Shown here: piece by piece, positions 14,156 through 64,000 of the stretch
Numbering within the stretch: the stretch's first letter is position 1
Layout of the letters: each line of letters begins with the position of its first letter
Assembly: GCA_026713545.1 (NCBI GenBank)
Contig: JAPOOG010000083.1
Coordinates: 62,001-126,000 of the forward strand
From: Bryobacterales bacterium
GTDB lineage: Bacteria; Acidobacteriota; Terriglobia; Bryobacterales; UBA6623
Length of the DNA stretch: 64,000 nt
Direction: 5' to 3'
Notes under the pieces: model-generated
Seen by the model: only the letters and a program-made list of their open reading frames with translations
Told to the model about the DNA's origin: nothing
The model's database searches: none
Made by a program: the position numbers and the translations under genes

Positions 14156-17100
14156 ATGTCCTACCGGGTCGGTATTCTCGCAGGTGTAGTGGCGTGCCTG
14201 CTCGGGACGGTTGCCCATGCAGTTGACCCCTGCGTGATTCGCGGTAACGTGATCACGTCGGGCTCGGAGCCTCTTCCGGGCACGCAGGTTGAACTGATCG
14301 ATTTTTCCACCGGAAAGGTCATCGTTACCCATACGGACTCGCAAGGACGCTTTGCATTCGAGGGTTTGGCGACCGGCCGCTACTCCGTTTCTTTTTCGCT
14401 CGACCAATACGCGACCCAAAGGATCGGGCCCTACGAGTTGCTGCCCGGCATCCCGCTCGAGCTTTTGGTGCAACTGCAGACTCTGGCCCCGCCTTTGACG
14501 CGGGCGAAGGCCGGCCTCGAAGGCATCGCACTCGAGTACGGACTCGTTCGCGAGCAGATCGAGAGTTTGCCGGTTCTGGTCGGCAGCGAAGGCCGTACGT
14601 CGGTCGACAAGTTGTTGTTGATGGTTCCGGGCATGAGTCCGACGACTTCGCTTGAGATCGATCCTTTCTCGGGACGTGGGGCAGCGGTTTCAGCCAACGG
14701 TTCACGACGCTCGGCGATCAACTACCAGTTCGATGGTGCGCTGAACAATTCGCAGAATCGCATCACTGGTGCGCAAGCCGCGACCTTCGGGCCCATACCG
14801 GAAGCCGTCGAGTCTTTTCGTGTTGTGACGCACACCTATTCGGCGGCTGACGGTCGTAACGCAGGCGCGATCGTCGCCCCGGTGTCGCGGCGCGGAGGTG
14901 ATAATTGGCACGGATCGCTTCGAAGCTTCTGGCGCCCCGGCATGAACGATGCCCTGGAGTCGTTCGACGGCTCGACGGATTCCATCAATGGATGGACCGG
15001 AGGTGGACAGATCGGTGGGCCACTATGGCGCAAGCGTGGACTCTTCTTCCTGTTGGACGCCGAAGGCTGGGGCACGCAGCGTGAGCATCTTGAAATCTCG
15101 AACGTCTTGAGCGAAGCAGAGCGCTCGGGAGACTTTTCGGCCGTTCCCGCCTTTGACCAACCCATCGATCCTGATACGCTCCAGCCCTATCCCAATGCGC
15201 AGTTGCCCACGACCGCCTTCGATCCGTTAATGGCCAAATATCTCGACACCTTTGTGCCGAGGGCCAACGTCGGCACAAACCTGCATCGGCAACAGAGCAC
15301 GCTTGACAGCAGCGGGGAGATGCTGCTTGGCCGGTTGGATTACCGGCGTCGGCAGTGGTCGATGAGTTGGAGTCACCACACCTTCCGAAATACTGTGCGG
15401 GACCCGCTGTCGGAGGTGCTGCTTGCCGTGCCCGGGGTAGCCGAACAGCGGCGCCAACTCTCCAACAACTCTCAAATCTACATCACATATTCGCCGACGG
15501 CCAACTTCACACACTCGACCGGCATAGCCGGACAGCGTCTGGCGATTGGTCGCTGGCAAGGACTCCTGGACTTTCGTGATGTGTCGGCCGAGAGTGTCGG
15601 ATTCAAGTTCCGGAGCTTCGGTACGGACCCCGGAACGATCCCCGACGTTACGCTTCTGACAAACGCAGGCGCGGAGAAACTGCGCATTACACCGTTCTTG
15701 TTCAGTGAGGGTTCAGCGCAGACGACGCTTCAGCTTCGCGAAGACGTCAGCTATCGCCGCGAGCGCGTGGGCTTGCGCGCCGGCGTGTCCTATCAGCGCG
15801 GCATCTGGCCGTTTTCTAACACCGAGAACCATGCCGGCAGCTTCACGTTTGGAACCCCTGCTACCGGTGGGACGCGCAACAGCGTGGCGAACCTGCTCAG
15901 CGGCGTCCCAAGTGGCTACCGTTTGCAGACGCCGCGAAGCTTGAATCTTCGTTGGACCGAATGGGCCTACTACGGTGAGGCCGTGTTGCGGCCGTTTCGA
16001 GGTGCGCAAATCACTCTCGGCTTGAGGTACGAGTCGCAGCCGCCGGCGGTCGATCGGCTGAATCGCGTGGCGGCTTTTCGCGAGGAAGTGGAATCGCAGC
16101 GTTTTCCCGACACCTTGTCGAACCTCATCTTCCCCGGCGACCCCGATGGCGACCTCGGGCCGTTGCCGCGTTCGACGGTCGAGACGGATGGCAAGCACTT
16201 CGTTCCGCGCGTTGGCCTCAGCTATTCTCCGGTATCGGACAACCGGGTCTCGCGTTGGATCTTTGGTGAGTCCGGACGCTCGGTATTCCGTGCTTCCTAC
16301 GGGGTTTTCTACGATTTCGGGACGTTCGCCGGATCAAGCGCCGCGGCGCTGTTTCAGGCCACCTATCCGCCGTTCAGTACCGATAACCGTTTCGACTTCA
16401 CGCCGTTCTCCGGCACCCAGGGGAGTTTTGAAGCGCCGCTGTCGAAGATTCCGGTGCTCGACCCGAATGCGATTCGCAGTCAGTATGTGACGTATCCCAT
16501 CCGGGTGTTTGATCGCAATTTCGACAACGCCTTCGCCCGGCATTGGACCATCGGTTGGCAGCGCTTGCTGCCCGGGCGCGTGCTGGTTAGTGGGGTTTAC
16601 TTGGGTACACGGAGCGAACAATTGCAGCGACAGCGTGAGTTGAACGTCTTCAGGCGCAACCCTCTCCTGCCGTTCAGCTTCATAAGCGGCATGCGCCGGT
16701 ACTCGCTGTACACGGATATCCGGCAATTCGAGAGCACGGGCACGAGTCTCTACCACGCGGCTCAAATTCGTGCGACGCGGTATCTGAACCGGGGCTTGGC
16801 CTTCGACGTGAGCTACAACTGGTCCCGCGCGCACGACGACGGCAGCACCACGTTTGGAGAAGAGTTGAATACGGAGCCCTGGGCTCTGTCGAACTTTGAT
16901 CGCCGCAACACGTTTACGGCTACCTGGTTCTATCAGCTTGGCTTGGCGCCGGGCCTGCGAAATCGCGCGGCTTGGCTTGACGGATGGATGATCAGCGGCA
17001 CTTGGCGGTATCGCTCCGGGTTGCCCCTCGATATCCGGCAAACGCAGGACCCGACGTTCAGCTTCGAGCACGTCGGGCGACCGGATCTGGTAGGTGAATT

Positions 17101-56452: not shown

Positions 56453-58495
56453 TCACGTCCGAAAGCCCACTGACCTCGGATAATCCGGCTTGGCTTCGCA
56501 CTCCATGCGCAACATATTCGCAAGCTCCTGTGGGTCTCGCAAGCAATCGAGAAGCTCGGCTTTCCGGCGCACGACAGCGAAGTCGCCCGGTGTCAGGGCG
56601 GCAAGATCTTCGAGCACGGCCGGGGGAGTAAGCGCAAAATAGTCCTGGAATGCAGCCGTCACCTGTTGAGGCAAGAGATAGTCGAGAGCGATCTTGAAGG
56701 TGAAGCGCCGCAGCGTCGCCGGATCGAGGTGTTCACCGAAGTTGGTCGTGCAAGCGAAGGGGAGCGGGTGGCTTTCCATCCAGGTCAGCATTTCGTTGAC
56801 TTGGCTGATCTCCCAGTTTCTTACTGCGAAACGCCGGTCGGCCAGCAGGGAATCGGCTTCGTCGAAGACCAGGAATGCCTCCGAGTTTCGCGCCTCGGCG
56901 AAGGCTGCCGCAATCAGCTTTTCGGTTTTGCCGACCCACATCGACATCAGGTCGGATGCTCTCTTTTGCACGACTTTGAGGCCGAGCCGGTCGGCGAGAT
57001 GGCGGACGAACGCGCTCTTCCCTGTGCCGGGCGGTCCTTGCAGACAAAGCGAGTAATGCCGCAGACCGCTGCCCGCGAGACGCTCCGCGAGCCGGACCGG
57101 GTTCGTATCGGCGCGGATCAGTGCTGTATCGAACTTCGCCGACGCTTGTTGACGCGGCGGCTTCACGCCGGATAGCACCCGCGACAGACCCTTTACGCCG
57201 CGGCGAACGTCGGCGATGGTTCCTCCGCCGAGCCGCGCAGCGGCGGTGACCCCGGCGGCCACGCCCGGTGTCACGTCGAACTCCACGGCGATGGCTCGCG
57301 CTTCTTCTTCGCCCGATTCGATGCCGTGACGAGCAAGCTGCCGCGACCAGATTCGAGTTCGGACTTTAGGCGGCGGTTGGCGCAGCTCCAGGGCGAACAT
57401 CATGCGGCGCAGAACGGTGGGGCACGTGTCCCGGGCTGAGTTCGAGGTCCACAGCGTGGGTGCCGGCGCCTGCTCGAGCAGGCGGTTCATGAACACCTTG
57501 GAGCCTTCGGCTCGGAGATGCTTGGGCACGTCGAACGGCATTCCGGCCCAAGGATGGGAAAGCAGGTCCTCCATCTCGTCGAAGAGCAGGATGGACCCGC
57601 GGCGAAGCGCCAGTAGGCGCTGGACAAGCCGGAGTTCCTGAAGCCTCTCGTGACGTGACGGCTCGCCGCCGCCGTGGCTGCTCGATTCGCCGACAGTATA
57701 AAGCGGTGCTTCCAGCCGCGCGGCCAGCGTCTTGCAGAACTCGGTCTTGCCGGTGCCCGGAGGCCCGTACACGAGGACGTTCACGCCCGATGCGCCGGTT
57801 TGCAGAGCCCCTTTCAGTACCCGTTCGACATGGTCACGATTCTCAGCTACGTGATCGAAATCCGACCAGCGGAGATCACCCGGGGGCGCCTCGTCGAGCA
57901 GCAGCCGCTGCGCGTCCGAATCGGCCTGATTCGAAACCCACTGCAGCCGATTCAGCCGGGCGATGGGCGTCAGGTCGCCATCGCACCCGATGAATACAAG
58001 CCCCGATTTCACGAGTGGCGCATCGGGCGCCAATCGGCTGAGGATCGTGTTGGGCGATACGCCGAGGAAGCAGGGCAGAGCTGGGCTTCTGCTAAAAAGT
58101 GCCCCCCGCCTACTGTCGAATATGCTGTCCACCATCGACTCGATGGTTGGCAGCACGCGGTAGAGCATCACGAACTCCAGAATTTCAGTATCCGTTCGCG
58201 AGAGGCGCATCGCCTTTCCGAGATACCGAAGCCGCCGCGCCAAGCGGTCTGGCCGTGCCCGAATAGCCACCTTATATTGGTTTTCAAGAGCTTCTCTCAG
58301 ATTCTCCCATTCCGGTGCCGGCACTCCTCGGCACAGCCCGTCTTTGGACGTCGGCGGACTTTCGAACTCCAGCTCGCTTTCGTGTTCGAAGACCCACTTC
58401 GCCAGTCCTGTCGCATTTGAAGAACTGTGTCGAAGTCGCGAGGCGGCGTTTGACAGGTAGAAGAAGACAAGGCGGCGTTCGTAGGCGGTGAGCAT
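56453..58495 (-). CDS. Double-AAA+ ATPase
   Basis: A 680-residue protein with two AAA+ modules. Module 1 has Walker A GPPGTGKT at 244-251 and Walker B ILLFDEMED at 302-310. Module 2 has Walker A GPPGTGKS at 487-494 and Walker B FLVFDEADS at 541-549, with a sensor/finger stretch TTNFGEHLDPATLRRF around 583-598. The first 230 residues are a helical region with no named domain. The start ATG 58495 is used over an upstream frame start at 58537. It is first in an operon with the nuclease. It may unfold or load a target for the nuclease, but this is inferred from context. Confidence 0.85.
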   Translation of the reverse strand: MLTAYERRLVFFYLSNAASRLRHSSSNATGLAKWVFEHESELEFESPPTSKDGLCRGVPAPEWENLREALENQYKVAIRARPDRLARRLRYLGKAMRLSRTDTEILEFVMLYRVLPTIESMVDSIFDSRRGALFSRSPALPCFLGVSPNTILSRLAPDAPLVKSGLVFIGCDGDLTPIARLNRLQWVSNQADSDAQRLLLDEAPPGDLRWSDFDHVAENRDHVERVLKGALQTGASGVNVLVYGPPGTGKTEFCKTLAARLEAPLYTVGESSSHGGGEPSRHERLQELRLVQRLLALRRGSILLFDEMEDLLSHPWAGMPFDVPKHLRAEGSKVFMNRLLEQAPAPTLWTSNSARDTCPTVLRRMMFALELRQPPPKVRTRIWSRQLARHGIESGEEEARAIAVEFDVTPGVAAGVTAAARLGGGTIADVRRGVKGLSRVLSGVKPPRQQASAKFDTALIRADTNPVRLAERLAGSGLRHYSLCLQGPPGTGKSAFVRHLADRLGLKVVQKRASDLMSMWVGKTEKLIAAAFAEARNSEAFLVFDEADSLLADRRFAVRNWEISQVNEMLTWMESHPLPFACTTNFGEHLDPATLRRFTFKIALDYLLPQQVTAAFQDYFALTPPAVLEDLAALTPGDFAVVRRKAELLDCLRDPQELANMLRMECEAKPDYPRSVGFRT

Positions 58496-58757
58496 GGCGT
58501 ATTCCGTGTTCCTGGCTCTCACGAGCGAGAGTAACACCGCAATGCGTCAGATTCGGACGCACTAACGTGCGCCCACAAAATATTTTTGGGTTCGGTAAAA
58601 ATACGGCGTATCAGCGCTTTGCAAACACGCACAAACTCCGTGCCATCTCTGATTCGGTCTGTGGATCGGCCTTCGATGCTCTCCCTGGACAGGCCGCCCG
58701 TTCTCAGCCTGTGGGTGTGACGGCCATCACGACACCGATCATCGTTGGGGATCTCAG

Positions 58758-62406: not shown

Positions 62407-63423
62407 TTACGGCAGAGGCAGGAGGCGGAGCACTCTTTTGCTTTCAAGCTCGTATACCCAACCTTCAAGCCGCAGACGCCCCGTAGCCGTGCGAGCCGCG
62501 ACCCAGGGATGTGTCTTCAGATTTCTGAGCTGCTGCAAAACGTTCTGCTTGACGAGTTCAAGCCAACGGGCGTCGGGGTCCAGAAGGGGGTGCAACTCGT
62601 CAACCGCCAATCTCGCGGGCGCGACATACTGGATCCAGTCTCTGACGCTTGGAACGGTATCGAGGCCGTCCGGCTCCAACGCGGCCTTCATCGCACCGCA
62701 AAGCGTATGCCCGCAGACAATGATGCTCGGCACTTCGAGCACGGCGACGGCGTACTCGATGGTGGCGGTCACTCCCTCGGGACGGGGGGCATACGGGGGC
62801 ACGATATTACCCGCGTTGCGGATGACAAACAGCTCGCCGATACCGGTCTGCGTGATCACGCTCGGAATCAGGCGCGAGTCCGAGCAGGTGATGAACAGGG
62901 AATCGGGCGACTGCCCTTGGGCCATGGATTTGAACAGTGGGGGACGGGACGATGCACCGCCAAACCGCTCGGCGGCGGATTCGGCAAGGGTCCCAGAACT
63001 GGTGGTCTGGAGGCGCGCGGCGATGGCACTGACTTCATCGGTCTCGGCAACCTCTCCCATCTGTGAAGCGACATCGACGCGCACTGCATCATTAGCACCG
63101 AAAATAACATCGGATTCGCGATACTTCCGGGAGCCGTCCAGGCGAATGATGCTCGTGTGGTTGCCGGCGGCAAGCATCAGGAAAGGGTATTCGTCAGAAG
63201 TGTTTGCTTCGCCCGAGAGGACAGCGCTGATTTCCTGGTGTGTAACCGCGGCCGCCGGAGCGTCGGGAATCATCGTGCCCGTGCTGTCGGACACCTTGCC
63301 GGTGGTATTGCCGTCAAGAACCTGAGCATATGCCGGCTCGACATTGAACCCTGCAATGACCGCGACAGCCGACAGGTAAATGCCAAGAAGGAATCTGTGG
63401 CCGGAGTAGCTGATACCCATCAT
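62407..63423 (-). CDS. Beta-carbonic anhydrase fused to a TonB-receptor-type N-terminus
   Basis: A 338-residue chimera. Residues 1-33 form a signal peptide ending AYA. Residues 34-145 read as the degenerate N-terminal carboxypeptidase-regulatory domain of an Acidobacteriota TonB receptor (VLDGNTTGKVSDSTGTMIPD, then VRVDVASQMGEVAETDEV and AARLQT). From about residue 150 a beta-carbonic anhydrase begins. Its zinc ligands are complete: C180-x-D182-x-R184 and H239-x2-C242, plus NAGNIVPP. It would hydrate CO2 in the periplasm. GAGGTG lies 5 bases before ATG 63423. The start region and frame are continuous, with no sign of a frameshift. Confidence 0.88.
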   Translation of the reverse strand: MMGISYSGHRFLLGIYLSAVAVIAGFNVEPAYAQVLDGNTTGKVSDSTGTMIPDAPAAAVTHQEISAVLSGEANTSDEYPFLMLAAGNHTSIIRLDGSRKYRESDVIFGANDAVRVDVASQMGEVAETDEVSAIAARLQTTSSGTLAESAAERFGGASSRPPLFKSMAQGQSPDSLFITCSDSRLIPSVITQTGIGELFVIRNAGNIVPPYAPRPEGVTATIEYAVAVLEVPSIIVCGHTLCGAMKAALEPDGLDTVPSVRDWIQYVAPARLAVDELHPLLDPDARWLELVKQNVLQQLRNLKTHPWVAARTATGRLRLEGWVYELESKRVLRLLPLP

Positions 63424-64000
63424 TCATTCACCTCTGTAATGATGTGGCGACTGGATGCACGAAACCCGCCGCCGCTTGACAACGACCTCTAATGTTACAT
63501 CCTTCGATGGTTTTGAACGATGCGGCCGTCTAACAATGGCTCGACTCCAAAGGCGCCACCCTGGACTTCATTTTGTATTGGCGCCAAGAAAACGGACAGG
63601 GCATCGGTGGTTCTAACCGGGTTGCGTTGTGAGGGCCAAAGTGGCGCGGCCGCCCGGCTGGGAATATGTCGATGCTCACGCCCCATCGTTCTGACATGTT
63701 CCTTGGTGTGGAAGAACACATTCATACCCCACCCCACAGTGGTTCTTCTTGACAAAAAAAGGCGCTGGGTGTATTCAATAAGTGTCCTTCAAAAGAAGGG
63801 CCAAAAAAGGTTTTCGAGGAGGGTGAAATAGAACCACCGGTCACCGGAAGGCGACCGCGCAAGAACACTGGCTCACAGCGGTTTGTGGCAACAAGCCGTT
63901 GTCGTTGACGGAGTATCGAGCCCGGCGAAACGCGCGTGGCTAGAGGGCGGAATGTCCACAACGATGTCGGCGAGGGCTGGTACGGCGCGGTCGCCTTTTG
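63424..64000. other. Intergenic to window end, no gene recognised
   Basis: A possible promoter for rightward transcription is TTGACA at 63750-63755 with a weak TATTCA 17 bases on. No convincing gene follows it before the window ends. Frames up to about 103 codons show no family. A gene may begin beyond the window. Confidence 0.4.

What the first reader, a model, noticed from the sequence alone, without database searches (positions are those of the whole stretch)
62407..63423. Beta-carbonic anhydrase carrying the signal peptide and first domain of a TonB receptor
Residues 34-145 follow the carboxypeptidase-regulatory/plug-start pattern of Acidobacteriota receptors, then a full carbonic anhydrase with all zinc ligands follows in one frame. 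Such a join would export a normally cytosolic enzyme and could come from recombination between a receptor gene and a carbonic anhydrase gene. I know of no described example.
Basis: partly seen in the sequence, partly recalled or inferred. Interest (0 to 1): 0.7.

Follow-up and report, generated by a model that had tools for sequence, protein, structure and literature searches.

The report
Carbonic anhydrase fused to receptor start
A bacterium's only beta-carbonic anhydrase starts with the export signal and first domain of an outer-membrane receptor; relatives preserve the neighbouring-gene state that probably preceded the join and trimmed versions that probably followed it, so it is a rare readable case of an enzyme gaining an export signal by gene fusion.

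Summary
The 338-aa ORF (window 62407-63423, minus) is an intact beta-carbonic anhydrase (Pfam Pro_CA, 9e-46; Cys180/Asp182/His239/Cys242 present) preceded in frame by a signal peptide and a CarboxypepD_reg-like domain matching the N-termini of 23 other ORFs, nearly all receptors, in the same genome. A second species of the genus has the same fusion (91% identity), so it is not an assembly error. The N-terminus groups with one orthologous receptor ("R*"), present nearly family-wide. In relative G006, R* lies directly downstream of this carbonic anhydrase, and its leader plus signal-peptide DNA is clearly homologous to the fusion's. Neither fusion genome has an intact R*. A sister genus has the orthologous enzyme with signal peptide but no receptor domain, and most copies share the fusion's leader/signal DNA. 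Most likely a recombination, plausibly a tandem duplication across the CA-R* neighbours, gave the enzyme R*'s leader, signal and first domain; the domain was later cut out in the sister genus and decays as a spacer here (dN/dS 0.50 against 0.05-0.29 for the same domain in ten receptors). Export, activity and any domain role are untested. New variant of a known kind (exported beta-CA); I found no described example of this join.

The parts
63424..63470 (-). 5' leader with Shine-Dalgarno-like AGAGGTG (about 63429-63435)
   Evidence: Leader plus signal-peptide DNA (171 bases) aligns with the R* gene of G006 (score 51-56; best of 43 other receptors 19) and with short exported CA genes of the sister genus.
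63325..63423 (-). signal peptide, residues 1-33 (predicted cut AYA|Q34)
   Evidence: Read from sequence: charged start, hydrophobic core FLLGIYLSAVAVIAGF, A-Y-A before Q; aligned with R* 'LVAGLNMEPAYAQVLYG' and with the short exported CAs. No signal-peptide program was available.
62986..63324 (-). receptor-derived CarboxypepD_reg-like domain and start of the plug linker, residues 34-146
   Evidence: 50% identity to R* of G006, 33% or less to other receptors of its own genome; in the R* group on the tree (97/90); dN/dS 0.50.
62947..62985 (-). junction/linker, residues 147-159
   Evidence: R* similarity ends near residue 146 (fusion RLQTTSSGTLAES, R* RLQTDRAEVRAEV); AAERFGG is shared with the short exported CAs.
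62410..62946 (-). beta-carbonic anhydrase domain, residues 160-338; stop codon 62407-62409
   Evidence: Pro_CA 9.3e-46; best solved relative 5swc, CcaA; pLDDT mostly about 80-95; dN/dS 0.15.
62884..62886 (-). zinc ligand Cys180 (Asp182 at 62878-62880)
   Evidence: Invariant in 42 aligned sequences.
62698..62709 (-). zinc ligands His239 and Cys242
   Evidence: Invariant in 42 aligned sequences.

Best explanation
It is an exported beta-carbonic anhydrase that obtained its leader, signal peptide and first 113 mature residues from a TonB-type receptor gene (R*) that was its neighbour. In the ancestor the order was CA then R*, as still seen in G006; a tandem duplication running from the CA start to about codon 146 of R* would create the fusion R*N-CA in one step. 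Later the original CA was lost, R* was lost in this genus and survives at another place in the sister genus, and the receptor domain was cut out of the fusion in the sister genus but persists here as a loosely constrained spacer. The protein is made with the receptor's signal, sent through Sec, cut after Ala33, and works as a zinc enzyme interconverting CO2 and bicarbonate in the periplasm. Shown by computation: the fusion, its R* ancestry, the second species, relaxed constraint. Inferred: direction of events, duplication mechanism, export, activity.
For: Match of residues 26-145 to 23 ORFs, nearly all receptors; same fusion in G001; CA next to R* in G006; R* is one orthologous receptor, 76-85% identical along its length across most of the family, 59% in G005; no R* orthologue in G000, G001 or G002, best full-length match 34% or less; fusion inside the R* group (97/90) and sister to G006's R* (99/78); CA tree puts G006's R*-adjacent CA outside fusion plus short forms (98/99, 100/97); leader and signal DNA homologous between fusion, G006 R* and most short forms; short forms keep a signal peptide and in some the start of the receptor's mature end (QVLDGTPAG, QVLEGGS); dN/dS of the receptor part 0.50 against 0.05-0.29 in ten receptor controls, Fisher p 0.002 pooled; zinc ligands intact.
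Against: The receptor part branches on a long stem (1.67 changes per column), so its exact sister is not firm. Apart from G006, the R* genes do not share the leader, which needs an extra step. The duplication is deduced from gene order in one genome. The branch joining the short forms is weak (88/1), so loss of the domain in the sister genus against late gain in this genus is parsimony, not proof. The short form of G011 barely matches. The dN/dS interval for the receptor part is wide (0.22-1.22). AlphaFold gave no confident model for residues 1-161 without an alignment.
Confidence: 0.72

Rival explanations
1. The short exported form is ancestral (only leader and signal were captured), and the receptor domain was added later in this genus by a second recombination with R*.
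For: Short forms are in nine genomes, the long form in two; the fusion's leader/signal is closer to R* of G006 (51-56) than that of the short forms is (16-27), as a fresh exchange would give.
Against: Needs two precise recombinations with the same receptor. The G009 short form's leader/signal is closer to the fusion (54-58) than to R* (27). Some short forms keep residues of the receptor's mature start. The receptor part is already strongly diverged from R*.
Confidence: 0.17
2. The receptor domain is a working part of the enzyme, for example a folded spacer or docking domain holding the enzyme near the outer membrane or a partner.
For: The frame is kept in two species with one in-frame codon deletion and no stop; the dN/dS point estimate is below 1 over residues 35-147 (0.50).
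Against: The frame must be kept anyway because the enzyme follows. dN/dS is higher than in all ten intact receptors and about 1.0 over residues 41-119. Orthologues exist without it. The Pfam signal has decayed from 71 to 17 bits.
Confidence: 0.1
3. Chance resemblance or assembly artefact: an open frame upstream of an ordinary cytosolic carbonic anhydrase.
For: Long open frames upstream of other family members do occur by chance.
Against: E down to 6e-13 against receptors of the same genome, clear DNA homology to R* including the leader, same join in a second species.
Confidence: 0.01

Closest known systems
Beta-class carbonic anhydrase (Pfam PF00484; CcaA 5swc and plant 1ekj among the nearest solved relatives)
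   Same: Fold, zinc ligands, sequence (phmmer 1.3e-44 to 5swc).
   Different: The known cytosolic or carboxysomal enzymes lack a receptor-derived signal peptide and domain.
Beta-carbonic anhydrases with predicted signal peptides in some Gram-negative bacteria, and cyanobacterial EcaB (PMC5746736; PMC9865033)
   Same: A beta-CA predicted to be periplasmic or extracellular, in the first case through an N-terminal signal.
   Different: The passages read describe no receptor domain and no origin of the signal; here the donor gene can be named.
TonB-dependent/Oar-like receptors with CarboxypepD_reg domain (R*; PF13620, PF07715, PF25183)
   Same: Signal peptide, CarboxypepD_reg-like domain and start of the plug linker.
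   Different: No plug and no beta-barrel; a carbonic anhydrase follows instead.
Transporter-carbonic anhydrase fusions such as SulP-CA (own knowledge; CA frames of 759-790 aa may be such)
   Same: A beta-CA joined to part of a membrane protein gene.
   Different: In SulP fusions the CA follows a whole transporter and is cytosolic (own knowledge); here only a signal and one soluble domain were taken.

Membership tests
Beta-carbonic anhydrase | Pro_CA domain above the curated score | tested here: met
   156.4 bits against 25.7.
Beta-carbonic anhydrase | Two Cys and one His as zinc ligands with the Asp-Arg pair | tested here: met
   C180, D182, R184, H239, C242 invariant in 42 aligned sequences.
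Beta-carbonic anhydrase | CO2 hydration activity | not testable with these tools
   Needs an assay.
Exported (periplasmic) beta-carbonic anhydrase | N-terminal signal peptide | tested here: met
   Read from sequence and by homology with receptor signal peptides and short exported relatives; no prediction program was run.
Exported (periplasmic) beta-carbonic anhydrase | Protein found outside the cytoplasm | not testable with these tools
   Needs fractionation.
TonB-dependent receptor | CarboxypepD_reg-like N-terminal domain (of this receptor type) | tested here: inconclusive
   Pfam below cut-off (16.8 against 32.3 bits) but clearly homologous to R* (50%).
TonB-dependent receptor | Plug domain and outer-membrane beta-barrel | tested here: not met
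   Neither is found in the ORF; R* of G006 has the barrel strongly and a Plug match just under its cut-off.

The most novel reading that the evidence does not exclude
The retained receptor domain has been given a new job, tethering or docking the periplasmic carbonic anhydrase at the envelope, making a new architecture in which a receptor module positions a soluble enzyme.
Probability: 0.1. Interest if true: 0.75.

Novelty: new variant of a known kind. Interest (0 to 1): 0.56.

Why it matters
How bacterial cytosolic enzymes acquire export signals is rarely traceable. Here the donor gene, a neighbour-gene state, a fused form and a trimmed form all survive in one bacterial family, so the steps can be ordered and tested. 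In the two fusion genomes, and in the nine sister-genus genomes with the short form, the signal-bearing enzyme is the only beta-carbonic anhydrase detected, which bears on where these bacteria handle CO2 and bicarbonate.

Tried and rejected
Long open frames upstream of other CAs in the order were checked and showed no signal peptide or receptor domain that I could recognise. No second fusion of this kind appears among the listed matches for 150 relatives or 396 genomes of the phylum; those lists are cut, so weak cases could be missed. Reading the empty site in G002 failed because its contig ends just past the penicillin amidase gene and only that gene is conserved there. AlphaFold gave no usable model of residues 1-161. 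A search for R* remnants beside the fusion found none apart from the fusion itself. An internal cytosolic start near Met167 was considered; I saw no Shine-Dalgarno sequence before it. Promoter and terminator scans were uninformative. Paper searches found no description of a CarboxypepD_reg or TonB-receptor join to a carbonic anhydrase; the library lacks most subscription papers.

Full report
What is there. The ORF at 62407-63423 (minus, 338 aa) is as described. Residues 176-329 are a Pro_CA domain (9.3e-46) and residues 41-119 give a weak, sub-threshold CarboxypepD_reg match. Residues 26-145 match the N-termini of 23 other ORFs in the same genome, nearly all long receptors, best E 6e-13. The nearest solved structure is the beta-CA CcaA, 5swc, and the CA domain is modelled mostly at pLDDT 80-95. 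The zinc ligands are invariant in 42 aligned sequences.

Not an artefact. Another species of the genus (G001) has the same gene, 337 aa and 91% identical, with a one-codon in-frame deletion in the receptor part and conserved gene neighbours: acetamidase/formamidase and glutamate dehydrogenase on one side, penicillin amidase, TauD-like and enolase-like genes on the other. The third genome held of the genus, G002, has no beta-CA.

Where the N-terminus comes from. Among receptors of the family the best match is a receptor of G006 (50%, E 3e-35), followed by one receptor in each of most other genomes (36-42%). These are one orthologous receptor, here called R*, 76-85% identical over its length across most of the family and 59% in G005. 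R* of G006 carries CarboxypepD_reg (71 bits), a Plug match just under the cut-off and a large outer-membrane barrel. G000, G001 and G002 have no R* orthologue; their best full-length matches are 34% or less, and the fusion is the only R*-like piece. On a tree of 57 receptor N-termini the fusion falls in the R* group (97/90), sister to G006's R* (99/78), on a long branch.

A snapshot of the state before the join. In G006 a carbonic anhydrase without a visible signal peptide lies about 0.15 kb upstream of R* on the same strand. On the CA tree this enzyme is the sister of fusion plus short forms (98/99 and 100/97). The fusion's leader and signal-peptide DNA aligns with that of G006's R* with score 51-56, against at most 19 for 43 other receptors. 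From the order CA-R*, a single tandem duplication running from the CA start to about codon 146 of R* would give CA - R*N-CA - R* in one step; this mechanism is inferred.

A state after the join. Nine genomes of the sister genus have the orthologous CA with a signal peptide but no receptor domain. Seven of these were compared: the leader and signal DNA of G009 scores 54-58 against the fusion, five others 24-37, and G011 is near background (13-15); against G006's R* the seven score 16-27 (leaders alone). G007 and G009 keep the first residues of the receptor's mature end (QVLDGTPAG, QVLEGGS). I read these as the fusion with the domain removed; the opposite order is a live rival.

Constraint. Between G000 and G001 the CA part has dN/dS 0.15, the receptor part 0.50 (bootstrap 0.22-1.22) and residues 41-119 about 1.0. 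The same domain in ten intact receptors of the same two genomes gives 0.05-0.29 (pooled Fisher p 0.002). The direct contrast between receptor part and CA part of the fusion is borderline (Fisher p 0.052). The domain is therefore most likely a decaying spacer kept in frame by the enzyme behind it.

Physiology. The fusion is the only beta-CA in G000 and G001; the sister-genus genomes with the short form also have one each. G000 has no alpha-CA but does have a YrdA-like, gamma-type homologue in a 182-aa frame. A split with a gamma-type enzyme in the cytosol and the beta-CA in the periplasm is possible but untested.

Compared with what is known. Beta-CAs with signal peptides have been predicted in several bacteria (PMC5746736), and cyanobacterial EcaB is predicted extracellular with contradictory records (PMC9865033). 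No held paper that I found describes a receptor-CA join. It is a beta-CA by sequence, not a TonB receptor (no plug, no barrel), and a new variant of exported beta-CA.

Limits.

Noticed in passing
L017 (G000:C139:5675-5989) and G000:C139:2964-5459: A receptor N-terminal domain in a 188-aa frame lies next to a 919-aa receptor frame that matches R* only from residue 229, which looks like a receptor split by a frameshift or stop.
   Followed up: no
G472:C1:2580310, G514:C9:10457, G274:C1:3725714: Carbonic anhydrase matches in frames of 759-790 aa, possibly transporter-CA fusions.
   Followed up: no
L053:9498-10040: G006's CA next to R* seems to start at TTG with an AAGGAAG site and no signal peptide; G006 also has a second, more ordinary beta-CA (L062:9085-9759).
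   Followed up: partly
L051:13623-16541: Two frames upstream of the fusion (L051:13623-14705 and 16155-16541) both match one TauD-like gene of G001 (94% and 56%), a possible small local duplication.
   Followed up: no
window 56453-58537: A 694-aa frame that looks like two AAA-type ATPase domains in tandem (GPPGTGK motif twice); no counterpart was found in the 18-kb stretch of G001 that holds the fusion.
   Followed up: no
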